From Labilibaculum antarcticum (lineage in GTDB: Bacteria > Bacteroidota > Bacteroidia > Bacteroidales > Marinifilaceae): a stretch of 64,000 bases of DNA. The notes under the pieces are model-generated. The model saw nothing but the letters and a program-made list of their open reading frames with translations. It was not told the origin of the DNA and made no database searches. The stretch covers positions 4,186,361 through 4,250,360 of the forward strand of contig NZ_AP018042.1 in assembly GCF_002356295.1 (NCBI RefSeq), written 5' to 3'. The translations under genes were made by a program, and so were the position numbers. Shown here one piece after another: positions 36,923 to 48,985 of this stretch (the stretch's first letter is position 1; every line of letters starts with the position of its first letter).

Positions 36923-38314
36923 TTATTTTAAGTAACTAGTCACTGCATCCTTTCTTTCCTGAGCGTGAGATTTAAGTGTTTCCACAGCTGAGTCGAAACT
37001 AGAATTGGATCCAAGAAAAGAGTATCCTGATTCTTCTGCGTAAGCATAATCTTTAATTAAATTGTAATAAGTTGTGTATGTATCGCTAAGTTCTGATGGA
37101 ATAAATACCTCGTTTACAAATTGTAGTAAGTAGTCATCATATATTTGTTTGTACTCTTCATCATCAATTAGGTAGCTGATCAAAGGCCACGAGGAGCTAA
37201 CTTCATTTAATGAGAAGCTTAAAGCACCTTGCAGTTTTCCGGCCTGGAAAGCTTCATTATTGTCCCAAGGAATCCATGTTAGTTTGTTTGTATTTAGATC
37301 GTTGTATAGATAATAATTGTGTGTCATGTTGCCGTAAGTATCCCAGTTTTGAATTACAGTATTGGCAGCTAGCCATTTTAAGAATCCGTCTACGTTAAAA
37401 ATATTTTCCAAATTACTTTTCCATTGAGCTATATCGCTAGTTCTGTCACTACTGTTGATGATGGTGTAGAGTGATTTTACATCCGTATAGTCAGCTTCGT
37501 CTTCGTTGGTTTTCTTTTCCATTTCGCTCTCGTCAAAACTACCACTTGCAAAACTTGCAGCATCACCATCTGGTTTGTACAAATTACCCGAACCATCGGT
37601 AAATTGGGTATCTATAACCGTATCATCAACTTCTTCCACCAAAGTGTATACTCCATAGTATTGGGAACCGGAACCATTGTCTACGTAAATAACACAAAAG
37701 GTAGTTTGGGATGAGGCCAATCCGAACTCACGGAACAAATCAGCTCCCACTTTTTCGCGCATTAATGACAAATCGTCGAAGTTATTGTTCAGGTTTAGTT
37801 GTTTAAAACCATAAAAACGTTGGTTCTTTAAAGATGGGTAATCATCTTCAAACTCATCAAAATCAAGCTTGAAAGATAGCTTCTTATTTCCTGATTGATA
37901 AGCAGAGCTTAAGCTTGAGTTTCCTTTGTAACGAACGCCAACATGGTACCATTCTGTATCGTTAAAATTAAAAGAACAAGGCACCCAAATTGGATCGAAA
38001 TCGCTTGTTGTTACCTGGCCTGGTCTTCCGGAATTACCACCTAAATTTGAAGATAAGTCTGATTGCATATCCGACCAATCGTCCGAATCTATTTTGATAT
38101 CGAAACGCAATACTTCGTTTTGATTAAAAACAGTAGCGTAATCCAATTCTGCACTTTTACTGTGCGTTGCATCTGTCCAGTCAGGATAAGTTTCGGTATC
38201 AACAATAACTTCTTCTTCACTTGTTTCGGTTGTCTCTTCAATTGCTTCATCATCGCGACAAGCGAATGTTATTCCTATTAAAAGGGCCAGTAGGTATAGA
38301 TATTTTGATTTCAT
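36923..38314 (-). CDS. CotH-family lipoprotein (atypical kinase fold)
   Basis: A 463-residue lipoprotein (lipobox TFAC at about residues 16-19), acidic linker, then a CotH domain from about residue 65. Typical parts are VGVRYKGNSSLSSAY, KLSFKLDFDEF, LNLNNNFDDLSLMREKVGADLF, YGVYTLVEEVDDTVI, NLYKPDGDAA and NYYLYNDLNTNKLTWIPWDNN. Bacillus CotH is a protein kinase acting on spore-coat proteins; bacterial envelope homologues are largely uncharacterised. It is the last gene of a four-gene operon whose promoter carries a LytTR-type site. Confidence 0.9.
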   Translation of the reverse strand: MKSKYLYLLALLIGITFACRDDEAIEETTETSEEEVIVDTETYPDWTDATHSKSAELDYATVFNQNEVLRFDIKIDSDDWSDMQSDLSSNLGGNSGRPGQVTTSDFDPIWVPCSFNFNDTEWYHVGVRYKGNSSLSSAYQSGNKKLSFKLDFDEFEDDYPSLKNQRFYGFKQLNLNNNFDDLSLMREKVGADLFREFGLASSQTTFCVIYVDNGSGSQYYGVYTLVEEVDDTVIDTQFTDGSGNLYKPDGDAASFASGSFDESEMEKKTNEDEADYTDVKSLYTIINSSDRTSDIAQWKSNLENIFNVDGFLKWLAANTVIQNWDTYGNMTHNYYLYNDLNTNKLTWIPWDNNEAFQAGKLQGALSFSLNEVSSSWPLISYLIDDEEYKQIYDDYLLQFVNEVFIPSELSDTYTTYYNLIKDYAYAEESGYSFLGSNSSFDSAVETLKSHAQERKDAVTSYLK

Positions 38315-38324
38315 AATATTTCGT

Positions 38325-38975
38325 TTAAAATTTTAGTTTATAACCCAAACTTACAATGTGTTTGTTTTTGAATTCATTCTGAAAGTAATCGAACTTGTAA
38401 CTGGCTTCGATGTAATTTTTCTTGCATATTTTATAATCCGCACCTAGAAAATAACGCATTTTACTAAGGTCACCGCCGCTTACTTCCTGAAAAGCTTCCA
38501 GACCTGCAAAAGGTGTTATTTTGCATTTTTTGATGTTGTATTTTAACTCGGTTTTGTAGCGTAGTAAATTACCGTTTGAATCATCATCAGAGTCGTTGGT
38601 GTAACTAATCTTAAGCGATGGCTCGAATCGGAGGTATGATTTTTCGTATTTTACATTGAATGAATACCGATTGTCGTATTCGGTGCTTTTGCTTTCTCTT
38701 TCATTTGCATAAAACCGATAGCCTGTTCCTAGTGATAGGTTATCTGTTAAGCTGTAAGAAAGTTTTCCTTCCAGTAAGTATTTGTCTAAAGAAAAGCTAT
38801 CGTCGAATCGAAATTCTGGACTGATACTCAACTTCAGATTTTTAAGCAACTTGGTGCTCGCAGTAAATGAGGTTCTGCTTTGAAAATCATTTTCAACTTC
38901 CTGAGCAATTGCAGTGTTCGCAATTATCAAAAGGAATAGAATAAGGTAGTGAGTCTTTTGTGTTATATTTTTCAT
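38325..38975 (-). CDS. DUF2490-family outer-membrane protein
   Basis: A 216-residue exported beta-barrel protein: signal peptide cut after IAQE (about residue 25), then alternating strands with LSISPEFRFDDS, LSLGTGYRFYANERES and YDNRYSFNVKYEKS, closing with IVSLGYKLKF. This is the pattern of the DUF2490 family in Bacteroidota outer membranes. It sits between DUF4956 and CotH with 10- and 24-base gaps, so it is in the operon and may place the CotH product at the outer membrane. Confidence 0.8.
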   Translation of the reverse strand: MKNITQKTHYLILFLLIIANTAIAQEVENDFQSRTSFTASTKLLKNLKLSISPEFRFDDSFSLDKYLLEGKLSYSLTDNLSLGTGYRFYANERESKSTEYDNRYSFNVKYEKSYLRFEPSLKISYTNDSDDDSNGNLLRYKTELKYNIKKCKITPFAGLEAFQEVSGGDLSKMRYFLGADYKICKKNYIEASYKFDYFQNEFKNKHIVSLGYKLKF

Positions 38976-38999
38976 GGTTTTAATTTTCCGGTTTGATAC

Positions 39000-39692
39000 T
39001 TACTTTTGGCCATTAATATTGTAGTAGAGAGTTATTTCTGCTACATCTCGTAGGAAATCAATCTTTTCAATTTCGTATCGACTGATGTTGATACCTGTTC
39101 TTTCCTGAAAATCAAGTAGCATCTCCTCATGTTTATTTTGGTGAACAAATTCAATTTTTTCATAAATGAGCTTGATCGATTTCTCTTGTTTTAACATCAG
39201 TTTTTTCTCTAAAAACCAAAGACCTGCAACGATGAGCGAGTTGGTGAGTATTAGTTCTGCATAACTTACTTTCTTATTCGAAAGGGCATTCATTACTGAT
39301 ATTCCGATAATGATGAACAGGTAAGTCATTTCCTTGATTGGAATGGCATCGGTTCGGTAACGAATAATTCCAAAAATGGCGAACAAACCAAGAGCAAATC
39401 CCAACTCCAGTTTCACACTATTCAAAAGGAAGCAGAGTAAAAAGACGATTACACCAATGGCGAGATAGCTGAAATAGAAATCTTTTCGACTGCTGTTTTT
39501 CGCATACATACAATGTGTTACCAAGAAAAGTAGAAAAGTGTTAAAGGAGAATCGAACGATTAGTTCGGTGAAATCACCAACATTAATTAGTTTGATTCCT
39601 AAAAAACGCAATTCCTCTTCCCAATTACTTATTTCGGTTACGAGTGGTACTGCATTTGTAATGGTGTCTGAAATTTGAATTAAATCGAGCAT
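39000..39692 (-). CDS. DUF4956 membrane protein
   Basis: A 230-residue inner-membrane protein with four predicted membrane segments between about residues 45 and 165 and a cytoplasmic C-terminal domain. The conserved core LGLFAIFGIIRYRTDAIPIKEMTYLFIIIGISVMNAL, with its RYRT segment, identifies DUF4956. Across bacteria this family is usually encoded beside a VTC-domain polyphosphate polymerase-like protein and CotH, as here. It ends 24 bases before the DUF2490 gene and starts six bases after the VTC gene. Confidence 0.9.
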   Translation of the reverse strand: MLDLIQISDTITNAVPLVTEISNWEEELRFLGIKLINVGDFTELIVRFSFNTFLLFLVTHCMYAKNSSRKDFYFSYLAIGVIVFLLCFLLNSVKLELGFALGLFAIFGIIRYRTDAIPIKEMTYLFIIIGISVMNALSNKKVSYAELILTNSLIVAGLWFLEKKLMLKQEKSIKLIYEKIEFVHQNKHEEMLLDFQERTGINISRYEIEKIDFLRDVAEITLYYNINGQK

Positions 39693-39698
39693 ATTTAA

Positions 39699-40451
39699 TT
39701 AGATTAGTTGATAGTTTGTTTGAGTAACTTTTTCAATGTTTCTTATTTTTGCTTTAAAGGCATTTTGCTTAAGGTTTGGATTCGTCATGCTTCTGCCTAC
39801 GCAGTATTTGCTAAATCCATTGTTCTTAATTCTATTTTTGCGTAAGGCCAATCCTAATGGAGAGGAACTTGATTTCCCATCCGATTTAATTTCAACAATT
39901 ACCAAGTTATCGAGCGAAACAATACTGTTCGATACTTCAAATTCGATATTTAAATCAATGGTGCATCTTTCTTTAAAATTTTTGTTCACCAAGGTCAGAC
40001 GGGTAAACTTATTTTCTAGAGAGGGTTTTAATTCTGCCGCAGAAAACGGTGTTTTTGAATTAATAAATTGATCCTCTGTACTTGTGAATTCAGAATAGCT
40101 TTGAGTACTGGGAATTCGTTTTTTAATGGTTCGACCCTTGTTGTTTTTGAATTTGATCTCCAAAAAACTGATTCCCGAATTAACGTAGCTTCTTCTTCTA
40201 ATTTTGAAGCGATTCAATTTGCCATTGTGATGTGCCGAAAACATGAAGTTTTTCTTCGTATCATAGTAAGTCGTTGCGTATGGTAATTGATATTCACCAT
40301 CAATATGTAAGAGATAATAATCTTCTTCCACCTGTTTTAATAGATCTGGCAGATAAGCACCATGAAACCAAAATTTATGATCGGTTCGGTTCATCAATTT
40401 CACCTTGTCCATCTCCTTTAGCTCTATTGAATCAAAATATTTTGTATTCAT
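39699..40451 (-). CDS. VTC-domain protein (polyphosphate polymerase-like)
   Basis: A 250-residue cytoplasmic protein with the VTC fold of the CYTH superfamily. The tunnel residues are recognisable: LMNRTDHKFWFHGAYLPD (about 18-35), TTYYDTKKNFMFSAHHNG, FKIRRRSYVNSG and FLEIKFKNNKGRTIKKR. Further on are VEIKSDG and a C-terminal FSKYCVGRSM. The yeast VTC4 domain makes polyphosphate from ATP; bacterial stand-alone VTC proteins may do the same. It is the first gene of the operon, with a promoter and LytTR-type repeats just upstream. Confidence 0.88.
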   Translation of the reverse strand: MNTKYFDSIELKEMDKVKLMNRTDHKFWFHGAYLPDLLKQVEEDYYLLHIDGEYQLPYATTYYDTKKNFMFSAHHNGKLNRFKIRRRSYVNSGISFLEIKFKNNKGRTIKKRIPSTQSYSEFTSTEDQFINSKTPFSAAELKPSLENKFTRLTLVNKNFKERCTIDLNIEFEVSNSIVSLDNLVIVEIKSDGKSSSSPLGLALRKNRIKNNGFSKYCVGRSMTNPNLKQNAFKAKIRNIEKVTQTNYQLI

Positions 40452-40480
40452 AATTGCCTTTGTTTTAATTAATGATGTTT

Positions 40481-40488
40481 CAAAAATA
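40481..40488 (-). promoter_or_regulatory. -7 promoter element of the VTC operon
   Basis: On the minus strand TATTTTTG matches TAnnTTTG exactly, 30 bases before the VTC start and 30 bases downstream of the LytTR-type repeats, a normal activator distance. Confidence 0.6.
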
Positions 40489-40517
40489 TTACAGAAGAGG
40501 GTCTTTTGGAAAAGGAA

Positions 40518-40549
40518 TCAACGAATGGGCGGATTTTATCAACGAATGG
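40518..40549 (-). promoter_or_regulatory. LytTR-type direct repeat, site 1
   Basis: TCAACGAATGG occurs at 40518-40528 and 40539-40549, 21 bp start to start. On the gene strand each half reads TTCGTTGAT, close to the known LytTR half-site (T/A)(A/C)(C/A)GTTN(A/G)(T/C) with a 12-base spacer. It begins 67 bases before the VTC start codon. Confidence 0.75.
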
Positions 40550-40765
40550 ACATTTTTATTTATTAGTTGTTTTTGATACCACAATGCTATTTCAAAATGA
40601 GTGGATTTATTTGGCATTCGAATTGTTCTTTAATCTGTGAAAACAATACTGATTTACTGTAAGTCTTGTTTTTATTGGGGTTGAAAAGAGTCCTGAATAT
40701 GACTTTTCCTACACAATTGTAGGATATCGCTCAGAAGTGCTAACCGAAATGTAAAATGAAAGCAT

Positions 40766-41017
40766 ATGTCGATAGGGAATGCAATAAGGTTTATGAATAA
40801 TGCGGATCGTGATTCCAGTTTTAGAAAATCGCTTTATAAAATAAATGGGATCGAAGAATTTCAAAAGTTTCAGAACAGTGAGGATCTGGAGTTTTCAAAT
40901 GATGAATTTGAAGAAGCTTTTAATCATTTGCATTCTGAATGTCAGTTTGCTGAACAGGCAGATACGCTTTTTAACCTGAAACATTTATTTGAATTAATCA
41001 TTTGTGATACAAAATAA
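40766..41017 (+). CDS. Nif11-like small protein
   Basis: An 83-residue protein whose first ~55 residues follow the Nif11 leader-domain pattern: MSIGNAIRFMNNADRDSSFRKSL, a helix-breaking stretch, then LEFSNDEFEEAFNHL in place of the usual GFxFTxxEL. Nif11 domains serve as leader peptides of some ribosomal natural products and also occur in nitrogen-fixation clusters. No GG cleavage motif, Cys-rich core or modification enzyme is visible, so a peptide product is not claimed. The next gene starts seven bases after its stop. Confidence 0.55.
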   Translation: MSIGNAIRFMNNADRDSSFRKSLYKINGIEEFQKFQNSEDLEFSNDEFEEAFNHLHSECQFAEQADTLFNLKHLFELIICDTK

Positions 41018-41024
41018 TACATCT

Positions 41025-41339
41025 ATGAGTACTATATACCGGGAGTTAACAAAAATAAAAGGTCTGATTGAAGAATTGGGATTTACAATTTCTTACCCTT
41101 ATGATGATTTGTTATTTGTAGATAGTAATGCTTTCTTGATTCAGTTTGATGATTCGAAGAAAGATTCCTTTTTTGCTTTTTTTAATGAAAGCATGAATGA
41201 TGCTGTTGTGGCCGATCTGGTGGAAAAAATGAAAGGATTGGCTCTTGCTAAAAAGCTTGAAATTAAATCGAAAGGTAGGTTTCAAATGAAACAAAAGGAG
41301 GGAAGCGATGAAGAATTGGAGTTGGAATTTATTTCCTGA
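41025..41339 (+). CDS. Hypothetical protein paired with the Nif11-like gene
   Basis: About 104 residues, soluble, beginning MSTIYRELTKIKGLIEELGF and ending in an acidic EGSDEELELEFIS tail. I recognise no family. The middle, YPYDDLLFVDSNAFLIQFDDS, suggests a small alpha/beta domain. The frame opens at 41004, overlapping the Nif11-like gene, but the ATG at 41025 is the likely start. The pair forms a two-gene unit converging on the LytTR regulator, with a hairpin over both stop codons. Confidence 0.6.
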   Translation: MSTIYRELTKIKGLIEELGFTISYPYDDLLFVDSNAFLIQFDDSKKDSFFAFFNESMNDAVVADLVEKMKGLALAKKLEIKSKGRFQMKQKEGSDEELELEFIS

Positions 41340-41358
41340 TCATCTAGATCAGGAAATT
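41332..41358. terminator. Hairpin across convergent stop codons
   Basis: ATTTCCTGATC (41332-41342) and GATCAGGAAAT (41348-41358) form a perfect 11-bp stem with a five-base loop, covering the stop codons of both convergent genes. T tracts are weak, so termination efficiency is uncertain. Confidence 0.55.
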
Positions 41359-42057
41359 GTTATCGATAAAATTCTGGAACTTTTCTTTGTATTGATCACT
41401 TATGGGAATGTAAACATCATTAAAAATAATTCGGTTACGTTCTATGGTCGTTATTTTTTGCAGGTTTACAATGTAGGAGCGGTGAACTCTCATGAATGTT
41501 GAAGAGGGCAGTTTTTCTTCGATCTTTTTCATGCTAAGCAATGTCATTAAGGGTTTGGCATTTTCAAGATGAATGCGCACATACTCCCTCATTCCTTCAA
41601 TGTAAAGAATATTTTCAATCTCGATTCGGATGATTTTGTATTCGGATTTAATAAACAAATGGTTCGAGCTTGCTTTAAGATCTTCAGTGCCAATTTTTAT
41701 ACGATCGAAGTGTGTTTGCGCCTTTAGTGCAGATTTTAAAAAAGTAGCATAATCAAGCGGTTTTAGTATGTAATCAAGTGCATTTACCTTAAATCCATCA
41801 AGTGCATATTCACTATAGGCAGTCGTGAATATAATTTCAGGACCATTGTTTAGCGATTTAGCCATGTCCATTCCATTCAAATCGGGCATGTGAATGTCCA
41901 GAAAAATCAGGTCTATCTTGTTTTCATTGATGTACTGTAAAGCATCCATGGCATTGTCGAAACCGGCTTGTAAATTTAGAAAAGCAGTTTTCTCAATATA
42001 TCCTGTAATTTGCTTCAGAGCCAATGGCTCATCGTCTATGGCTATGCAGTTAATCAT
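41344..42057 (-). CDS. LytTR-family response regulator
   Basis: A 237-residue regulator with a receiver domain (about 1-115; acidic pair IDDEP, phosphoacceptor Asp in LIFLDIHMPDLNG, conserved Lys in LDYILKPLDY) and a LytTR DNA-binding domain (about 135-235; KIIRIEIENILYIEGMREYV, FMRVHRSYIVNL). LytTR proteins bind pairs of 9-bp direct repeats 21-22 bp apart; three such sites lie in this window near its own gene. It overlaps the kinase gene by eight bases. Confidence 0.95.
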   Translation of the reverse strand: MINCIAIDDEPLALKQITGYIEKTAFLNLQAGFDNAMDALQYINENKIDLIFLDIHMPDLNGMDMAKSLNNGPEIIFTTAYSEYALDGFKVNALDYILKPLDYATFLKSALKAQTHFDRIKIGTEDLKASSNHLFIKSEYKIIRIEIENILYIEGMREYVRIHLENAKPLMTLLSMKKIEEKLPSSTFMRVHRSYIVNLQKITTIERNRIIFNDVYIPISDQYKEKFQNFIDNNFLI

Positions 42058-43174
42058 TTTTTAAAGGTATAATTAGTTTTACTTGATATTCATTTTCAGA
42101 TTCAATAATGTCGAAGCTTTGCTCACCATCGAATAATATATCCAGTTGTTTACGCAAATTGACCAATCCTACACCAGTTCCTTTTTCTATTTTGGACTTA
42201 GGTGAAACACTGTTTTTTATTTCAAAAGATAGCTGTTCTTGATCTTGTTTTGCATGAATGGAAATATAGGATTCTTTGGAATAACTAATGCCATATTTAA
42301 AGGCATTTTCTACTAAAGAGATAAAGAGTAAGGATGGGATTTTTTGATGATCATCTGGTATCTCAAAATTGACATCAATCTTCACTTTGTCTGAATATCT
42401 AATTCGCATCAAGTCGATGTATGAGTTTAAAAATTCAAATTCGGCTCTGATTGTTGCTGTTCCCTGTTGAGATTCATTGAGCAAATATCTCATCAGTTTT
42501 GACAGTTCAATTACCGATTTTTGTGCTTGAACTTGGTCTATTTCAATTAGTGCATGGATGTTATTAAGTGTGTTCATGAAAAAGTGCGGGCTAATTTGAG
42601 TTCTCAGAAAAGAGAGTTCTGTTTCCAGATGAATCTTCTCTTTTTCCTCGCGTTGCAATTCTTCTTTTTGTCTGCTGATTCCCAGTTTAATTGCATTGTT
42701 AAAGCCAACAACCAAAAATGAAATAATCATATTCTCAAATATGAGATAACTGAAAGGTTTGTTTCCTCTTAGTTGTGAATGCCTGCCAAAGGGTGGCGGT
42801 TCGGGAAACGCACCCATCGAATCAGGTGACATTGGTCCTTCTGGATGCATTGGGATTCTTTCTGGACCTGGCCCTTGAAACAAAAAATCGTGTAATATTT
42901 GGGGTAAATTGTTAAAAACAGAAAATAAAATAACAATTGTTAATATTGAAATAGAATACCCAATCAGCTTTTGTTTGAAAAAAAGTTTGGGAGCCAATAA
43001 GCTGTTGTTGATAATGAAAATCAGTAAAAAAGGAAGGATACGAATCCACTCCAGAATAACTCTGTCCCAATTGAATTCATCGCCGCCTTTTAGGGTGAAA
43101 ACAGGTAGGGATAAAACCATCAACCATAGCAATGCATAGATCAGATTCTCGCTTCGTTTTTGTGTAATTATCAT
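42050..43174 (-). CDS. LytS-type sensor histidine kinase with Pro/Met/His-rich loop
   Basis: A 374-residue His_kinase-family sensor (PF06580). It has four predicted membrane segments (about residues 10-165), then a cytoplasmic coiled coil, the phosphoacceptor motif SPHFFMNTLNNIH (about 196-208) and a HATPase with LVENAFKYG and GVGLVNLRKQL. Between membrane segments 3 and 4, about residues 100-140 form an unusual extracytoplasmic loop rich in Pro, Met, Gly and His (PERIPMHPEGPMSPDSMG), a plausible metal or redox sensor. It is co-transcribed with the LytTR regulator. Confidence 0.92.
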   Translation of the reverse strand: MIITQKRSENLIYALLWLMVLSLPVFTLKGGDEFNWDRVILEWIRILPFLLIFIINNSLLAPKLFFKQKLIGYSISILTIVILFSVFNNLPQILHDFLFQGPGPERIPMHPEGPMSPDSMGAFPEPPPFGRHSQLRGNKPFSYLIFENMIISFLVVGFNNAIKLGISRQKEELQREEKEKIHLETELSFLRTQISPHFFMNTLNNIHALIEIDQVQAQKSVIELSKLMRYLLNESQQGTATIRAEFEFLNSYIDLMRIRYSDKVKIDVNFEIPDDHQKIPSLLFISLVENAFKYGISYSKESYISIHAKQDQEQLSFEIKNSVSPKSKIEKGTGVGLVNLRKQLDILFDGEQSFDIIESENEYQVKLIIPLKND

Positions 43175-43292
43175 ATTAGGTAAAGATTGTTTCTGTAAAA
43201 ATATCCAAATAATTCATTTTTTTGTGAGAGAGATGCAAATAGTTCTTTTATTTATGATTCGTTTTTATCATTTCTTAGAAAGGCATCCAATT

Positions 43293-45068
43293 TTAAATTG
43301 AATTAGGCTTTGGCCAGCTTCCGAATGGCTGTTTCTCAAATTGCATACTGCCATCATCTCCTTTAAAAATATTAATCCAGGCCTGCCAGTTTTCATTGTC
43401 CATTTCAGGATAATCCATGCGATAATGACTGCAACGGCTTTCTTTCCGCATCAGGGATGCTTTCAGTTTCATTTCAGCAGTTGTAATCATATTAACCGTT
43501 TCGTGGGCCAATCGCAATTCGTGCATATCAGCTGCTCTTAGCATGGGAACATGGTGATCGCGTAATTCTTCAACATAGGCTAGAGCAGCCTTAAGCATGT
43601 TCTCTTTTTTTACATACAAAACAAAGTTCGGAATCATGATTCCTTGTAAGGTTTGGGTTACCCAAGCCGGACTGTAACCTGCTTCCCGATGCAAGGGAGC
43701 CAATATTTTTTCTTTAATGTCTTGAATTTTACCTTTAGAAATTACATGCGTGCTTATATTGGCAGAATATTCTGCAGCAGCTTCGCCGGCAATTGCCCCC
43801 TGAACAGCTGAGCCTGCTAATGATGAGCCTATTTGAGTATAAATACCTCCAGACATGTGAGAGCCGAGAGCATCGCCCGCAGCATACAATCCAGGAATGT
43901 TCGATTCACATTTGTCGTTAATGGGTACGAGTCCTTCCGATTTGTGTATGGCCATTCCTGCAGATGATCCACCTACTGATACACCACCCATTCCTGGAGG
44001 GCCTCCACCTTCACCTGACTTTTCTCCTCTTGGCGGTCTTTTACCATCTTCGGGTCCATTCATAGGTCCCTCTTTACGATTTTCTTGTCCACTTCGATTG
44101 AATTCATCTGGAGTGAATGGTCCACCAGAAGTTTTCTTATTGGCTCCAGCACCCGGAGGACTCATTTGCACAGGATTTCCATTGGTGTAGGCTACGTAGT
44201 TCAAGTCAACACCTAAATCGTGATGGACTTCAATACCATTCACACTTGGTTTGCGTTCGAACATATTGTGCCATCCATTGAAACAGTCAGCGGCATTTGT
44301 GGCTTGTCCCAGGTGGCCATCATTCCATTCTTTTCCTGTTACTTTGGCTCCAATATTATAAGCCATTATTGTTCCATCGTGAGTAAGGTCACAAATGGGG
44401 AACCCATTAGGTTTAAACCCTCCAGCTCCGGTACAAAGAATAACACTTTTTGCATTAAAAATGTAAACCTTCTCATCATCGAGACTAAAACCTGCAGCGC
44501 CGACAATTTTACCCTGCTCTTTTATTAAACTGGTGATTACAATTCGTTCCAGTAAAGCAATTTTTCTTTCGTTTATCGGTTTGCTGAATGACTTGTTGTA
44601 CAATGCAGAATCGAAAAATCCCCATTCGCGAAGCTCTTGAACTCTTGCGAACGAGTGTTCAGCCATTTGTTTGGTGTATACCGAGTTGTTCGATCCCAAT
44701 GCGGAACGAGAAACCGTAGCAGTAAATTCATCAATGGAGACTTTCGCTGTGTTTGGATCGTAAGCAAAAATACCTTTGGCAAAAGGCGTTTGCCCCGATG
44801 AACCAAGTCTTCCTTTTGAAATCATCACTGTTTTCGCGCCGGCATCATGTCCCTTAACAGCTGCAAATAGTCCAGCCATTCCACCGCCAATAACCAAAAT
44901 GTCAGTTTCTTCTTCTATGTATTTTAATGATTTTAGATCAATATCTGTTTTGTTTGCAGCCCAACCTGCAATACCCATTGAGGCAAGAGTCGCCATGCCA
45001 ATTGCTCCGCCGGCCAGTCCCATAAATTTTCTACGGGTTATTTCATTTCTGTTATTTGTATTTGTCAT
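43293..45068 (-). CDS. Tat-exported FAD-dependent oxidoreductase (fumarate-reductase/FrdA type)
   Basis: A 591-residue flavoprotein. The N-terminus has a twin-arginine signal (TRRKFMGLAGGAIG, about residues 11-24), so it works in the periplasm. The FAD-binding domain starts with DILVIGGGMAGLFAAVKGHDAG (about 55-76) and SSGQTPFAKG follows. A Gly/Pro-rich insertion of about 60 residues (near 320-380: SPPGAGANKKTSGG, EGGGPPGMGG) interrupts the capping region. The C-terminal helical domain has SRCSHYRMDYPE, where a catalytic Arg is expected. Electron partners are the membrane protein and ferredoxin encoded just upstream; its start overlaps the membrane gene by four bases. Confidence 0.88.
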   Translation of the reverse strand: MTNTNNRNEITRRKFMGLAGGAIGMATLASMGIAGWAANKTDIDLKSLKYIEEETDILVIGGGMAGLFAAVKGHDAGAKTVMISKGRLGSSGQTPFAKGIFAYDPNTAKVSIDEFTATVSRSALGSNNSVYTKQMAEHSFARVQELREWGFFDSALYNKSFSKPINERKIALLERIVITSLIKEQGKIVGAAGFSLDDEKVYIFNAKSVILCTGAGGFKPNGFPICDLTHDGTIMAYNIGAKVTGKEWNDGHLGQATNAADCFNGWHNMFERKPSVNGIEVHHDLGVDLNYVAYTNGNPVQMSPPGAGANKKTSGGPFTPDEFNRSGQENRKEGPMNGPEDGKRPPRGEKSGEGGGPPGMGGVSVGGSSAGMAIHKSEGLVPINDKCESNIPGLYAAGDALGSHMSGGIYTQIGSSLAGSAVQGAIAGEAAAEYSANISTHVISKGKIQDIKEKILAPLHREAGYSPAWVTQTLQGIMIPNFVLYVKKENMLKAALAYVEELRDHHVPMLRAADMHELRLAHETVNMITTAEMKLKASLMRKESRCSHYRMDYPEMDNENWQAWINIFKGDDGSMQFEKQPFGSWPKPNSI

Positions 45069-45700
45069 TTGGTATCCTCCGATTTTTTTAAAAGGTAGGT
45101 TTTTAGTAATAAAAATATTCCGATCCCCGAAAGGACAATAATGAAGATGAACATAGCTGAGTGGATGTGTCGTCCCAGATCAATTATGTGCCATGCGGCT
45201 GTTGCAATAAAAGCAATCGATAAAATTCCATGAAAGACTCTCCATGTTTTGTAATTCATTCCTAATCTATTTCGAAAAATAGAGCTTACACCTAAAATTA
45301 GCATCAAACACCATGCGATTATCCCAAGAACTATTCCTGTACTGTTTAAGCTTGTGATGATGGTGAAAAAAGCATCAATTGGTTCTACTCCCGATTCAAA
45401 ATACCGAGGAAGAACAAGTAGAAAAGGATGAATCAGCAAAATAGATACAAATACATATCCAAGGTATTTGTGCAGTTTCAGTACTTTGCTCATTTTATGA
45501 TCTTTTAGGATGTTTTTGTTGCTGCGAGCCAGATAAAATTGGGCTAACATCATGCAAAAGGCAATGATAGTGAGTAATGAAATTCCCTCCTTCAGAATAC
45601 TGCGTGCAGGGTAATTTCCTAAGCCCAGAAAGAGGATTGGCAATCCAAGAAAGATAAATACTGCCGCTATGATATTAATTTTTTTAATTCGTTTTTCCAT
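45065..45700 (-). CDS. Ferric-reductase-like haem b membrane protein
   Basis: About 211 residues with six predicted membrane helices and no soluble domain. Histidine pairs spaced on two helices (KLHKYLGYVFVSILLIHPF and WRVFHGILSIAFIATAAWHI) fit haem coordination in the ferric-reductase-like transmembrane family. It would carry electrons from the cytoplasmic ferredoxin to the periplasmic flavoprotein. The open frame reaches 45895, but that part lies over the ferredoxin gene; the ATG at 45700, two bases after the ferredoxin stop, is the start. Confidence 0.8.
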   Translation of the reverse strand: MEKRIKKINIIAAVFIFLGLPILFLGLGNYPARSILKEGISLLTIIAFCMMLAQFYLARSNKNILKDHKMSKVLKLHKYLGYVFVSILLIHPFLLVLPRYFESGVEPIDAFFTIITSLNSTGIVLGIIAWCLMLILGVSSIFRNRLGMNYKTWRVFHGILSIAFIATAAWHIIDLGRHIHSAMFIFIIVLSGIGIFLLLKTYLLKKSEDTK

Positions 45701-45702
45701 AA

Positions 45703-45918
45703 TTACCCCCATGAAACAATTACTGGTATCGATTTTTCCGGAGTAATTGTAATGGCATCTACCGGACAATACATTCTGCATAAGTGGCAAATTTGACAAT
45801 CTGCCGGATATTTTATAGTCGCTTTTTTTGTTTCCGGATCCAAACGAATTACGTCGGTAGGGCAGGTTTTTACGCAAATTCCGCAACCTATACATCCGTT
45901 TATATTTTCTATAGCCAT
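45703..45918 (-). CDS. 2[4Fe-4S] ferredoxin-like protein
   Basis: A 71-residue cytoplasmic iron-sulphur protein with two cluster motifs: CIGCGICVKTCP (about residues 9-20) and CQICHLCRMYCP (about 41-52). Both keep four cysteines, so two [4Fe-4S] clusters are expected. No signal peptide is present. It is the first gene of a three-gene electron-transfer operon with the haem membrane protein and Tat flavoprotein, and its upstream region carries LytTR-type repeats. Confidence 0.92.
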   Translation of the reverse strand: MAIENINGCIGCGICVKTCPTDVIRLDPETKKATIKYPADCQICHLCRMYCPVDAITITPEKSIPVIVSWG

Positions 45919-45991
45919 CGCTTTGTTTTATGTGATGATATTACCTTTATATGGTAAAGTAACATGATCGTATCCAAGGGAGGAAATCGGA

Positions 45992-46023
45992 TCAACGAAT
46001 GGGCAAATTTTATCAACGAATGG
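45992..46023 (-). promoter_or_regulatory. LytTR-type direct repeat, site 2
   Basis: TCAACGAATGG at 45992-46002 and again at 46013-46023, exactly 21 bp apart, identical in half-site sequence and spacing to site 1. It begins 74 bases before the ferredoxin start codon. A weak -7-like TTACTTTA (45955-45962, minus strand) lies at the same distance as in the VTC promoter. Confidence 0.75.
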
Positions 46024-46088
46024 GGGAATTAGAATTACAGGAGGGGAGTTTCTTGCTTCGGGAAATATAGCTTTAAACTGTATGTAAT

Positions 46089-46133
46089 GAAAAAAAAATA
46101 CCAGAACACCCACATTAGGGTAGTTCTGGTAAC
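46089..46133 (-). terminator. Terminator after the Spy-like gene
   Basis: On the minus strand TTACCAGAAC...GTTCTGGTA, extended by CTACCC/GGGTG, forms a strong hairpin followed by eight T. Confidence 0.85.
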
Positions 46134-46156
46134 TAGCACACTACTATTATTCTTTC

Positions 46157-46552
46157 TTAACGTCTTTTTTGAGGGCCATTTTGTTTGGGCTTATTCTCTT
46201 TCAGAAAAGCTTCAAACTGTTCTTGTTGTTCGGGTGATAAAATTGCTTTCACTTCTTTCTCAAATTTTGATTCGAACGCATCCATTTCGTTTTTACTCGG
46301 TTTTGAGTTTTTTACTTTCGCAGATATTTCTTTGAAATGAGCAGTGTATAAATCTGAAAGCTGTTCGCTTTTTTCATCTGTTAAATCAAGAGTTTTGCTT
46401 AATTCGCTCACCATTTTCTTGATTTGTGTTGTGTTTGGAATTGGAGGAGGTCCTTGCTGTCCTCCCGGTTGGGCTTGCAAAAGGTTTCCGCTAATCGCTG
46501 TTATAGCTACTATCATTAGTATGCTTGCGATTTTCTTTATATCTGTTTTCAT
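46157..46552 (-). CDS. Spy/CpxP-like periplasmic protein
   Basis: A 131-residue exported helical protein: signal peptide cut after LQAQ (about residue 28), Pro/Gln-rich linker PGGQQGPPPIP, then helices with LTDEKSEQLSDLYTAHF and ILSPEQQEQFEAFLKE. The LSPEQQxxF pattern is that of LTXXQ-motif proteins related to Spy and CpxP, which act as periplasmic chaperones or metal-stress sensors in enterobacteria. It lies 38 bases after the DUF1566 gene and before a strong terminator, so it is the distal gene of that operon. Confidence 0.75.
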   Translation of the reverse strand: MKTDIKKIASILMIVAITAISGNLLQAQPGGQQGPPPIPNTTQIKKMVSELSKTLDLTDEKSEQLSDLYTAHFKEISAKVKNSKPSKNEMDAFESKFEKEVKAILSPEQQEQFEAFLKENKPKQNGPQKRR

Positions 46553-46590
46553 GATTGTAAAATATTAATATTTGTGTTTTTATCGTCAAA

Positions 46591-47943
46591 TTATTTGGTG
46601 TCACGTACTAAGCGGATGTAATTCAGAATGCGTACTGCATCGCCCTGTGGACCGTGCCCTTCGGAATATTCACTTGGATCACCCGATTTAGGATCGCTAC
46701 GCTGTGCTCCGGCACCGTGCACGTCTGTCCAATTGATTGAATCCGAAGAAGAATCGATATTGTCTGTAGGAGGAGGTCCTTGTTCACCTTCCGTTGGGGG
46801 GTTTTGATCATCTGGCAGTATAGTAGACTCGTTTCCCATGGCGCGACCAAAAGCAACATAGGCTCCCCAACCACCGTTATTATCATTACCTGTAGTTGCG
46901 TGTGTTGTTCCACTCCAGTAAAAAGGATAATCAACTTCACCAGCTTCGTTCGTTATTTGTGTGCAGTTAAAAATTGGATTGATAGCTGCAGAAGCAGATG
47001 ATTGTGGAGAACGGGAATAGTCAACAATACTCTGCAATTCTTTTGCACTTGGTAAGCGCCAGTCTGAACGACCTGCGAATTCAAAGCTTTCGGCATAAGC
47101 AAGAGCATTTTGCCAATTCATACCTTCGTCACTATCATCCTGCATCCACATTAAATCTGTTGCTAAATCGCTTATTGTTCCATCGGCATTGTCCGAAAAA
47201 TTATTTTCACCATATGTCGTGTTACCACGAACCATCAAATAGTTAAATACTTTCGCTTGTCCCATCATAGTTGTTCCGTAGCCTTTAATACGTCCATCTG
47301 CAAAGTTGACACCAAAAACCATCTCGATTTCAGTATTACCAACAGATACATTAGTTGAGGCACATTGTACATCGATCAAGCGTTCGCCTGCATCGGTATC
47401 ACCATAATTGAAGCCAAAATAATCGGTATTGATAAAAGGTGTTAATCCTTCGGTTGAAGTTCCTTCATAACCACTAATATCGCGACCGCTGAACATCATT
47501 AAGGAGTATTGTTCTTTGATTGTAGGTACTCTCCAATCGGTATAATCTCCTGTAGCCACCTCACTGGCTAAAGCTAGTATTTCGGCATAAGTTAATTTGT
47601 CGTCATAATTGATAAGTCCATCACTGTTGTGATCCAATGTGTTTTGCCACATGAGTCCGGTTACCATATCTGTTACGGTTCCATCTCCATTGTCAACATA
47701 TTGCGGTGTAGTTCCTGGATAATTCGCATTTTGGCCATAAAAATCATCGCCCGAAGAGGGAGTCGAGATATTTGTTGTATTGTTGAAAGCGGTAGATTGA
47801 TTTGTTCCAACAATAGGGTAGCCAGAAATGTCTGGTAAGTTTTCAGTTATATTTTCACTATCAGAAATAGTGTCATCATCGCTACAAGCGAATGTGCTGG
47901 CTAATAATGCTAAAGAGCTTATTAAAATCCAATTTAGTCTCAT
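46591..47943 (-). CDS. DUF1566 (Lcl-type) lipoprotein, two domains
   Basis: A 450-residue lipoprotein (lipobox TFAC at about residues 17-20). Two DUF1566 units are visible: NGDGTVTDMVTGLMWQNTLD...YTDWRVPTIKEQYSLM (about 85-150) and NADGTISDLATDLMWMQDD...RSDWRLPSAKELQSIV (about 250-310). Near the end lies a Pro-rich stretch, EGEQGPPPTDN. The family occurs in envelope and secreted proteins and its biochemical role is not settled. It heads an operon with the Spy-like gene and has a LytTR-type site 67 bases before its start. Confidence 0.8.
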   Translation of the reverse strand: MRLNWILISSLALLASTFACSDDDTISDSENITENLPDISGYPIVGTNQSTAFNNTTNISTPSSGDDFYGQNANYPGTTPQYVDNGDGTVTDMVTGLMWQNTLDHNSDGLINYDDKLTYAEILALASEVATGDYTDWRVPTIKEQYSLMMFSGRDISGYEGTSTEGLTPFINTDYFGFNYGDTDAGERLIDVQCASTNVSVGNTEIEMVFGVNFADGRIKGYGTTMMGQAKVFNYLMVRGNTTYGENNFSDNADGTISDLATDLMWMQDDSDEGMNWQNALAYAESFEFAGRSDWRLPSAKELQSIVDYSRSPQSSASAAINPIFNCTQITNEAGEVDYPFYWSGTTHATTGNDNNGGWGAYVAFGRAMGNESTILPDDQNPPTEGEQGPPPTDNIDSSSDSINWTDVHGAGAQRSDPKSGDPSEYSEGHGPQGDAVRILNYIRLVRDTK

Positions 47944-48009
47944 ACCTTAGAGTTTTAGTTTCTAATTTGATACTAAGGAATGAGATTTTATTTTTATACT
48001 AAAAAGGAA

Positions 48010-48042
48010 TCAATGAATACTCGAATTTCATCTACGAATTGG
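48010..48042 (-). promoter_or_regulatory. LytTR-type direct repeat, site 3 (divergent)
   Basis: TCAATGAAT (48010-48018) and TCTACGAAT (48031-48039) are degenerate copies of the half-site at exactly the same 21-bp phase. The element begins 67 bases before the DUF1566 start codon, the same offset as site 1. Confidence 0.55.
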
Positions 48043-48104: not shown

Positions 48105-48938
48105 CTAATGACTCACCCAAAGATCATATATTTCAACTTCGCCGTATGCTGTTGCTTTATCTCCTTTACTCACATTTGATTGTGTGTAGCAACCAGCCTT
48201 AAAATAACATCCATTAGCATTTACTTTGTAGGTGTAGATGTATTCATCATTGTAATAGCATTTTACGCCTCCCTCTTCAGCGATGAATTTAACTGTGAAA
48301 ATATCTCCTAATTGATAATCGGAAGTAAGAACAGGACCATCATTTCCATTTTCATCAATAAACAGCTTGTCGTTTTCCAGACGGAAAACAATCACATCAT
48401 CATTGGCATCGTGGATTTGCCCAGCAACTACATGTTTTTTGTAATCGGGTAGGTGAGTAATGGCTTGTTTGATATACATCGTATGTGTGCCTGAAGTTGT
48501 GCTCCAGCTAGCTTTTGAATTTGAACCGGCGTAGTTGGGATTCATCTCACGAAGCTCACTTCTGGGGTAGCCCGAACCAGATGTGGTAACACCTCCACAA
48601 TGTGCTCTGAACACAACACCATCTTCCGAACTGTTTACATGGAAATAGGTGTCGTGCTTAAAAATTTCGAGTTCCGGCTGATAAATGTCCATTGGATTAT
48701 CGTTATCGTCAATTTCCGAAATAGGTAATGTCTCTTCCCAGCAGCTTAAATTAAGGATTGAAGCTGGATATTTAGTGGAAGCGATATTCTCATCGTCATT
48801 CTCGGGTTCTTCAATTTTTGCTTCAGTGGAATCTTCCTCTGTACTATTCTCTTTTGAACAAGCTAAAGTAAATGTTATTAACAGAGCAAAGAATGAAAGT
48901 CGTACAATTTGTTTGAAGAATGAATTTTTAAGAATCAT
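48105..48938 (-). CDS. Alginate lyase, polysaccharide lyase family 7, lipoprotein
   Basis: About 277 residues: lipoprotein signal (lipobox LAC near residues 25-27 from the ATG), acidic linker, then a PL7 jelly-roll. The three PL7 motifs are present: RSELREM (about residues 130-136), QIH (about 172-174) and YFKAGCYTQ (about 250-258), supplying the catalytic Arg, Gln, His and Tyr. It would cut alginate by beta-elimination at the cell surface. The frame opens with a GTG at 48962, but the ATG at 48938 gives a compact lipoprotein signal. A TTGGTAGACCAA palindrome overlaps its promoter. Confidence 0.9.
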   Translation of the reverse strand: MILKNSFFKQIVRLSFFALLITFTLACSKENSTEEDSTEAKIEEPENDDENIASTKYPASILNLSCWEETLPISEIDDNDNPMDIYQPELEIFKHDTYFHVNSSEDGVVFRAHCGGVTTSGSGYPRSELREMNPNYAGSNSKASWSTTSGTHTMYIKQAITHLPDYKKHVVAGQIHDANDDVIVFRLENDKLFIDENGNDGPVLTSDYQLGDIFTVKFIAEEGGVKCYYNDEYIYTYKVNANGCYFKAGCYTQSNVSKGDKATAYGEVEIYDLWVSH

Positions 48939-48985
48939 AAGGCTTGTTTTTTTGATTTTCACTTCGTTAAATTACATTAATTTAA

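What the first reader, a model, noticed from the sequence alone, without database searches (positions are those of the whole stretch)
36923..48042. Three operons share a 21-bp-phased direct repeat: a predicted LytTR regulon around its own regulator
TCAACGAATGG occurs twice, 21 bp apart, at 40518 and 45992; a degraded pair with the same 21-bp phase is at 48010. They start 67, 74 and 67 bases before the first codons of the VTC operon, the ferredoxin operon and the DUF1566 operon, all on the minus strand. On the gene strand the half-site TTCGTTGAT fits 8 of 9 positions of the published LytTR half-site, and a LytTR regulator with its kinase lies between the operons. In the VTC promoter a perfect -7 element follows at 30 bases, a normal activator geometry. 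This ties otherwise unrelated genes into one regulon by sequence evidence.
Basis: partly seen in the sequence, partly recalled or inferred. Interest (0 to 1): 0.87.

Follow-up and report, generated by a model that had tools for sequence, protein, structure and literature searches.

The report
LytTR regulon of envelope genes
Three gene groups around a two-component regulator carry the same repeated DNA tag at a fixed distance from their promoters, and related bacteria keep the tag, so the regulator very probably switches them on together; this is a new example of a known kind of control, over a poorly understood cell-surface system.

Summary
Two promoters carry TTCGTTGAT-N12-TTCGTTGAT perfectly, a third in degraded form. 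They are the only three places in the 5.7-Mb genome that match a degenerate consensus without mismatch. The element recurs in relatives (Labilibaculum, Ancylomarina, wider Bacteroidota) before the same genes: VTC-DUF4956-DUF2490-CotH, ferredoxin/ferric-reductase/FAD, DUF1566/LTXXQ, and in some the HK-LytTR pair itself. Outside the columns used to find sites, 52 of 56 non-redundant sites have a -7-like T...TTn[G/A] exactly 28 bases after the right half-site; the next best offset has 8. A close LytTR relative is present in 11 of 12 checked genomes with the site before the VTC operon and 2 of 12 without. In one relative an HK-LytTR pair without the other genes nearby has the site as its own promoter. 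Most likely the adjacent LytTR response regulator binds the repeat just upstream of the -33 region, recruits RNA polymerase, and in some relatives activates its own operon. No binding or expression was measured. New member of a known kind; the regulated envelope system is the more interesting part.

The parts
40512..40549 (-). LytTR-type element of the VTC promoter: half-sites TTCGTTGAT at 40546-40538 and 40525-40517, 21 bp apart
   Evidence: (54.0 bits)
40481..40488 (-). -7 element TATTTTTG of the VTC promoter, 28 bases after the right half-site
39699..40451 (-). VTC-domain protein (polyphosphate polymerase-like), first gene of the operon
   Evidence: PF09359, 7.3e-23
39000..39692 (-). DUF4956 membrane protein
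   Evidence: PF16316, 1e-49; hydrophobic segments
38325..38975 (-). DUF2490 protein, probably an outer-membrane barrel (inferred)
   Evidence: PF10677, 1.8e-20; OMP_b-brl below its cut-off
36923..38314 (-). CotH kinase-like protein, probably exported (inferred)
   Evidence: PF08757, 1.7e-71
41344..42057 (-). response regulator, receiver plus LytTR domain: proposed binder of the elements
   Evidence: PF00072 and PF04397; receiver box LIFLDIHMPDLNG (its Asp recalled as the phosphorylated kind)
42050..43174 (-). LytS-type sensor histidine kinase with a Pro/Gly-rich stretch between hydrophobic segments
   Evidence: PF06580, 1.6e-23; hydropathy and His box
43293..45068 (-). FAD protein like SdhA/FrdA, Tat-like N-terminus (motif recalled), Pro/Gly-rich insert
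45065..45700 (-). ferric-reductase-like membrane protein (start inferred, inside a longer ORF)
   Evidence: PF01794, 4.4e-15
45703..45918 (-). two-cluster 4Fe-4S ferredoxin, first gene of the operon
   Evidence: PF12838, 3.8e-11
45986..46023 (-). LytTR-type element of the ferredoxin promoter: half-sites 46020-46012 and 45999-45991
   Evidence: (40.0 bits)
45955..45962 (-). -7-like element TTACTTTA at the same 28-base offset
46157..46552 (-). LTXXQ/CpxP-like small protein downstream of DUF1566
   Evidence: PF07813, 1e-4, just below its cut-off
46591..47943 (-). DUF1566 (Lcl_C) protein, probably a lipoprotein (inferred), first gene of its operon
   Evidence: PF07603, 1e-37
48004..48041 (-). degraded LytTR-type element of the DUF1566 promoter: TTCGTAGAT 48038-48030 and TTCATTGAT 48017-48009
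   Evidence: (34.0 bits)
47973..47980 (-). -7-like element TTCCTTAG at the same 28-base offset

Best explanation
The three repeats are operators of the two-component system encoded between them. The kinase (42050-43174) senses an unknown envelope signal and phosphorylates the LytTR regulator (41344-42057). The regulator binds the two half-sites, two helical turns apart, immediately upstream of the -33 region, and recruits RNA polymerase to promoters whose -7 elements are often weak. It thus turns on together (1) VTC-DUF4956-DUF2490-CotH, (2) ferredoxin/ferric-reductase-like/FAD protein, probably with its own kinase and regulator genes downstream, which would make a positive feedback loop, and (3) DUF1566-LTXXQ. 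Shown by sequence: the sites, their conservation, the fixed promoter geometry, and the co-occurrence with this LytTR. Inferred: binding, phosphorylation, activation rather than repression, and operon extents.
For: Only three 0-mismatch matches to the degenerate consensus in 5.7 Mb. Half-site test in 300 bases upstream of VTC, no weight matrix: at gap 21, 18 of 27 loci of group A score at least 14 of 18 and 14 of 27 at least 15; in 57 loci of group B, 0 and 0. Other gaps from 15 to 28 give at most 7 and 2 of 27, at gap 25 (groups defined in Tried and rejected). A matrix trained only on VTC sites finds sites before other genes: ferredoxin, LTXXQ, DUF1566, second CotH, HK-LytTR. In the 964,456 bases of group B it hits once at 14 bits or more. 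T...TTn[G/A] at +28 in 52 of 56 non-redundant sites and 33 of 35 not used in training; next best offsets 8 and 7. Own site before HK-LytTR in L054, L055, L090 and in G011. LytTR relative of at least 55% identity in 11 of 12 genomes with the site before the VTC operon against 2 of 12 without, Fisher p = 0.0006. Four of the 11 were already known as neighbours of VTC; without them 7 of 8 against 2 of 12, p = 0.0045.
Against: No binding or expression data. The genome has 13 LytTR-domain matches, and one paralog (L005) is 52% identical with a similar binding domain. L095 has a site (30.3 bits, before LTXXQ-VTC) but its genome's best LytTR is 38%. L098, L100 and L110 have no site of 14 bits; L105 has one only before DUF1566. 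L156 and L160 have the LytTR relative but no site before the VTC found there. G006 has an HK-LytTR pair (36%, 42%) without any site of 12 bits in its 15-kb stretch. Among 14 short loci around LytTR relatives of at least 55% (L257-L269, L277), only L260 and L277 show a site of 12 bits. In the tree the site-linked regulators are clustered but not one clade: 3 changes against a shuffled mean of 10.6. Half-site position 2 departs from the published consensus.
Confidence: 0.87

Rival explanations
1. The element is a real shared operator, but the acting protein is another LytTR paralog or a different regulator of the same genome.
For: 13 LytTR matches in the genome; paralog L005 is 52% identical overall with a related binding domain; L095 has a site without a close LytTR.
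Against: No near-identical 20-23-bp-phased repeat upstream of the L005-type kinase gene and no site of at least 14 bits in the 3.3-kb loci of 11 other LytTR genes, L003 and L005-L014 (L015 not scored). The sites accompany this LytTR in linked and unlinked cases, and the site before the G011 pair has no other known target in the stretch.
Confidence: 0.09
2. The element is a repressor site, or the regulator acts as both activator and repressor.
For: Position near a promoter does not by itself fix the sign of control.
Against: The repeat ends upstream of the promoter elements: TTT begins 4 bases after it in 46 of 51 sites and the -7-like TT at +32/+33 is in 51 of 51. Many -7 elements are weak (A at position 2 in 20 of 51), which suits activation. 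In S. mutans the LRS repeats lie 4-11 bp upstream of -35, and HdrR activates its operon through them (PMC6193735, passages).
Confidence: 0.07
3. The three promoters are alike because a promoter was duplicated recently, not because one protein binds them.
For: All three sites lie within about 7.5 kb.
Against: The site is kept while spacers, flanks and -7 elements differ between the promoters. In the family each promoter type largely keeps its own -7 variant: VTC mostly TATTTTTG, ferredoxin mostly TTACTTTA, LTXXQ/DUF1566 mostly TTCCTTAG.
Confidence: 0.02
4. The match is a chance repeat.
For: The exact 11-mer is short, and loose patterns do hit coding DNA.
Against: Genome-wide and comparative tests.
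Confidence: 0.01

Closest known systems
LytTR Regulatory Systems (LRS) and LytTR direct repeats of Streptococcus mutans and Bacteroides (PMC6193735, passages read)
   Same: Two 9-bp direct repeats with a 12-bp spacer just upstream of the -35/-33 region, and autoregulation. In B. thetaiotaomicron 11-bp repeats with an 11-bp spacer lie upstream of TGTA-19 bp-TATCTTTG; here TTT-21 bp-TAnnTTTG-like.
   Different: S. mutans-type LRS regulators lack a receiver and pair with a membrane inhibitor; here the regulator has a receiver domain and pairs with a histidine kinase. The targets are different genes.
AgrA-type half-site consensus (TA)(AC)(CA)GTTN(AG)(TG) (PMC8826819, one passage read)
   Same: TTCGTTGAT fits 8 of 9 positions.
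   Different: Position 2 is T in 48 of 51 left half-sites; in right half-sites T 31, A or C 20 of 51.
YpdA/YpdB, a LytS/LytTR system of E. coli (PMC4847170, passages read)
   Same: LytS-type kinase with LytTR regulator; the paper gives repeats of 9-11 nt with 11-13 nt spacers for almost all such regulators.
   Different: YpdB half-site is GGCATTTCAT at the yhjX promoter.
CotH / polyphosphate polymerase / DUF4956 accessory genes of Gram-positive Pel clusters (PMC7112168 and PMC12345266, passages read)
   Same: The same three protein kinds side by side. In S. intermedius, mutants of the CotH-like gene and of the neighbouring four-TM gene (its match to DUF4956 is my inference) change Pel levels and reduce aggregation.
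   Different: Here with DUF2490 in Bacteroidota and, by this reading, under LytTR control; no hit for PF11997 in this genome.

Membership tests
LytTR two-component regulon | Response regulator with receiver and LytTR domain | tested here: met
   PF00072 1.1e-19, PF04397 2.3e-21
LytTR two-component regulon | Cognate LytS-type histidine kinase | tested here: met
   PF06580 1.6e-23, overlapping gene, His box present
LytTR two-component regulon | 9-11 nt direct repeats with 11-13 nt spacer | tested here: met
   9 nt, 12 nt spacer
LytTR two-component regulon | Half-site consensus (TA)(AC)(CA)GTTN(AG)(TG) | tested here: inconclusive
   8 of 9; position 2 is T in 48 of 51 left and 31 of 51 right half-sites. 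PMC4847170 says that LytTR sites share no common consensus.
LytTR two-component regulon | Repeats 4-11 bp upstream of the -35/-33 region (range given for S. mutans) | tested here: met
   TTT starts 4 bases after the right half-site in 46 of 51 sites
LytTR two-component regulon | Regulator binds the repeats and changes transcription | not testable with these tools
   needs binding and expression assays
LRS (LytTR Regulatory System) | Regulator without receiver domain, paired with a membrane inhibitor | tested here: not met
   receiver domain and kinase present
Sigma-ABfr promoter | -7 element TAnnTTTG | tested here: inconclusive
   first T 48, TT 51, G or A at the last position 49 of 51, but A at position 2 only 20 of 51
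Pel-associated CotH/PPP/DUF4956 module | Adjacent Pel synthesis genes | tested here: not met
   PF11997 (PelF-type, recalled) has no match in the whole genome; other Pel genes were not searched

The most novel reading that the evidence does not exclude
The regulon defines one unrecognised envelope system of marine and sediment Bacteroidota. In it a cytoplasmic VTC polymerase, a membrane and an outer-membrane partner, an exported CotH kinase, a ferredoxin-to-periplasm electron path and Pro/Gly-rich surface proteins work together, and its sensor kinase carries the same kind of Pro/Gly-rich stretch as proteins it controls, which may be how it monitors their assembly.
Probability: 0.3. Interest if true: 0.75.

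Novelty: new member of a known kind. Interest (0 to 1): 0.56.

Why it matters
It gives a readable promoter code (TTCGTTGATAAAAT-N7-TTCGTTGAT, TTT, -7 at +28) that can assign genes to one regulon across many Bacteroidota genomes. It ties the VTC-DUF4956-CotH module, whose role is unexplained, to a periplasmic redox path and to surface proteins, so the module's function can be approached through one regulator deletion.

Tried and rejected
Order-wide pattern search (393 genomes, 62 with a match) gave hits of which 30 loci were looked at: most lie in coding DNA; those next to regulon genes were L063, L077, L082 and L086, chosen for that reason and added. Only the + strand of each 3-kb locus was scored, so reverse sites there were judged by position and blast. 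A search for repeats upstream of the paralogous kinase genes (L223, second pair of L055) found none with 9 of 10 identity at gaps 20-23. Of the 47 loose own-genome hits, 26 loci (L231-L256) were scored with the matrix; one, L241, passed 14 bits (19.5) but has no -7 element at +28 and was rejected; 17 hits came without a locus in that answer. The site in L112 (24.7 bits) has TACTTTTG at +29 beside genes of another kind; left open. Paper searches for LytTR with CotH/VTC/DUF4956; DUF4956; LytTR with Bacteroidetes and direct repeat; CotH with polyphosphate polymerase and operon; LytTR with Bacteroides and regulon; and Cthe_2159/CotH/polyphosphate/DUF4956 listed no title or abstract on this regulon; only open-licence papers are held and most listed papers were not opened. 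Structure prediction was not used.

Groups and dropped rows. Group A (27): window, L051-L056, L090, L092-L110. Group B (57): L057 and L111-L167 without L164. I drew this line. L056 (VTC 44%) is in A because HK-LytTR follows it; moved to B, A would be 17 and 13 of 26 and B 1 and 1 of 58. L112 (VTC 49%) is in B though L110 (49%) is in A. L088, L089 and L091 are the same contigs as L051, L053 and L055; L164 had too short an upstream stretch. I excluded three sites above 20 bits from the promoter counts: L053 + 8050 (inside the DUF2490 gene, antisense), L105 + 4327 and L101 - 9173 (no known target). None of these three fits the +28 rule, so keeping them would give 52 of 59. The overlapping L105 + 4348 (22.9 bits), dropped with 4327, does fit: TAAGTTTG. 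Near-identical flanks were removed (54 to 51 sites). The matrix was trained on 20 VTC sites chosen by half-site score, so VTC sites are not independent of it; left out one at a time they score 11.2 to 52.4 bits, 19 of 20 at least 18.6. The 24 genomes are 24 of the 80 loci, picked by hand; completeness of those genomes is not given.
Full report
WHAT IS THERE. The window lies in a 5.7-Mb single-contig genome; named relatives with this locus at 71-76% VTC identity are Labilibaculum and Ancylomarina. On the minus strand the VTC promoter reads TTCGTTGAT-AAAATCCGCCCA-TTCGTTGAT and the ferredoxin promoter TTCGTTGAT-AAAATTTGCCCA-TTCGTTGAT. The DUF1566 promoter has TTCGTAGAT and TTCATTGAT in the same 21-bp phase. 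Genes: CotH, DUF2490, DUF4956 and VTC; LytTR regulator and LytS-type kinase; FAD protein; ferric-reductase-like membrane protein; ferredoxin; LTXXQ-like; DUF1566. The ferredoxin is a separate 71-codon frame at 45918-45703.

IS IT MORE THAN CHANCE. In the whole genome the two perfect pairs are unique and the DUF1566 pair is one of six with 2 mismatches. Of the 23 other hits at up to 3 mismatches, 22 lie at long stop-free runs and the one that does not (L035) scores 4.3 bits. With a consensus allowing the variants seen in relatives, exactly three places match without mismatch and all are in this cluster; the next two have 2 mismatches, and 47 hits at up to 3 mismatches compare with 23 for the reversed control.

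CONSERVATION. VTC relatives were found in 9 of 56 genomes of the family, the own one included. Five others are 71-76% identical (G049, G050, G028, G026, G029), and all five have the 21-bp pair before VTC. Pairs also stand before the ferredoxin operon in the four that have it there (G049, G050, G028, G026) and before LTXXQ in G049, G050, G028 and G029, but not before LTXXQ in G026. Among the 80 named loci, most with the extended module carry it, whereas loci with little more than a distant VTC-DUF4956 pair do not. By plain half-site counting in 300 bases upstream of VTC, gap 21 gives 18 of 27 at 14 or more matches and 14 of 27 at 15 or more in group A, against 0 of 57 for both in group B. Among the other gaps from 15 to 28 the best is gap 25, with 7 and 2 of 27. 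How I drew the groups, and the failures, are told in Tried and rejected and the Against line.

SITES BEFORE OTHER GENES. A 38-column matrix trained on 20 VTC sites finds further sites 28-234 bases before ferredoxin, LTXXQ, DUF1566, a second CotH (with a secretion tail in L104) and HK-LytTR. It also finds sites away from the main cluster before DUF1566 paralogs in G026, G049 and G050, and before a 702-residue TPR sensor kinase in G026 and a protein of the same length in G028 (only the G026 one was scanned). In the DNA of the 57 group-B loci it hits once in 964,456 bases at 14 bits or more.

PROMOTER GEOMETRY. This is the strongest independent evidence. Columns from +5 after the right half-site were not part of the matrix. 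Yet in 51 non-redundant sites T at +32 and +33 is invariant, T at +28 occurs in 48, and G or A at +35 in 49; in a T-rich -33-like patch +4, +5 and +6 are T in 48, 51 and 49. Counted as T...TTn[G/A], offset 28 has 52 of 56 sites and the next best offset 8; for sites not used in training it is 33 of 35, next best 7. This matches the Bacteroidota -7 and -33 elements TAnnTTTG and TTTG (PMC7366714, passages and one section) and the published LytTR layout, repeats 4-11 bp upstream of -35 in S. mutans (PMC6193735, passages). The -7 elements are often poor: position 2 is A in only 20 of 51, and the DUF1566 type is TTCCTTAG. That suits promoters needing an activator (inference).

WHICH REGULATOR. The genome has 13 LytTR matches, so adjacency alone is weak. 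Further facts point to the adjacent one. Some relatives have a site before HK-LytTR itself (L054, L055, L090). In G011 an HK-LytTR pair (39% and 52% identical) stands without the other genes in its 16-kb stretch and has the site at 41.4 bits. In G009 the same two neighbour genes and the site (43.7 bits) are present but no HK-LytTR frame is seen there, as if the pair had been lost and its promoter left (inference). Against this, G006 has a more distant pair (36%, 42%) and no site. In 24 genomes checked, a LytTR relative of at least 55% identity is present in 11 of 12 with the site before the VTC operon and 2 of 12 without, Fisher p = 0.0006. Four of the 11 were known beforehand to have it beside VTC; without them it is 7 of 8 against 2 of 12, p = 0.0045. 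The genomes are related and 55% is my cut. In those seven the regulator lies outside the fetched stretch around VTC (I did not match contig numbers to names), and in five of the seven loci it stands beside DUF1566 or LTXXQ genes. The tree of 32 regulators clusters the site-linked ones, 3 changes against a shuffled mean of 10.6, but does not make them one clade, and several forks are weak.

HOW IT PROBABLY WORKS. The kinase senses, the regulator is phosphorylated and binds two half-sites two turns of DNA apart next to the -33 region, and polymerase is recruited. In the window the regulator genes follow the FAD gene by 118 bases on the same strand without their own site (best -7.1 bits), so feedback would run through the ferredoxin promoter. 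None of these steps was measured.

WHAT IT CONTROLS. A cytoplasmic VTC enzyme, a membrane protein, a probable outer-membrane protein and a probable exported CotH kinase form one operon. CotH, polyphosphate polymerase and DUF4956 genes also accompany Gram-positive Pel clusters (PMC7112168, passages), and mutants of two such genes change Pel levels and reduce aggregation in S. intermedius (PMC12345266, passages). That paper says it failed to find the three genes together outside Pel loci; here they are, in a genome without a PF11997 (PelF-type, recalled) hit. The second operon looks like an electron path from ferredoxin through a membrane haem protein to an exported SdhA-like flavoprotein (inference from families). 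A role in making or modifying a surface polymer, with redox input, is my guess.

A SHARED ODDITY. A Pro/Gly-rich stretch (at least 12 of 30 residues) occurs in 31 of 79 homologues of HK, FAD, DUF1566, CotH and LTXXQ, against 2 of 294 other frames in the same loci; one of those 2 lies just before VTC in L098. I chose the five classes after seeing the table; the VTC, DUF4956, DUF2490, LytTR and HK1048 homologues have none. Homologues are related, so the Fisher p overstates it. In the kinase the stretch lies between hydrophobic segments at about 70-93 and 140-162.

VERDICT. The finding is real and the interpretation supported; binding and the sign of control are untested. It is a new member of a known kind of regulon around a poorly understood envelope system.

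Noticed in passing
window 42050-43174, 43293-45068, 46157-46552, 46591-47943: The sensor kinase and several regulon proteins share Pro/Gly-rich stretches (31 of 79 homologues against 2 of 294 other frames), in unrelated folds.
   Followed up: partly
L224 7424 (-) and L225 6328 (+): G009 keeps the site and neighbours of the G011 HK-LytTR pair but no HK-LytTR frame is seen in the stretch: apparently an orphan promoter.
   Followed up: partly
window 40766-41339 (+): Two small genes between LytTR and VTC on the other strand, the first with a weak Nif11 match (1.3e-4, just below its cut-off); both kept in L055.
   Followed up: no
L226 9493-11775, L229 4541-6994: Sites before a 702-residue TPR sensor kinase (G026) and a protein of the same length (G028), away from the main cluster, suggest that the regulon includes a second sensor.
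   Followed up: no
L112 6074 (-): A similar element (24.7 bits) near a TetR-like gene and an outer-membrane efflux-like gene (both named by eye) in Paludibacter sp. 221, with TACTTTTG at +29; perhaps a related LytTR's site.
   Followed up: no
window 48105-48962 (-): Alginate lyase-family gene (PF08787, 3.4e-38) directly upstream of the DUF1566 operon, without a site of 14 bits of its own.
   Followed up: no
L054 13197-14945, L056 13515-15488: Cthe_2159 carbohydrate-binding proteins next to the VTC module in G026 and G010.
   Followed up: no
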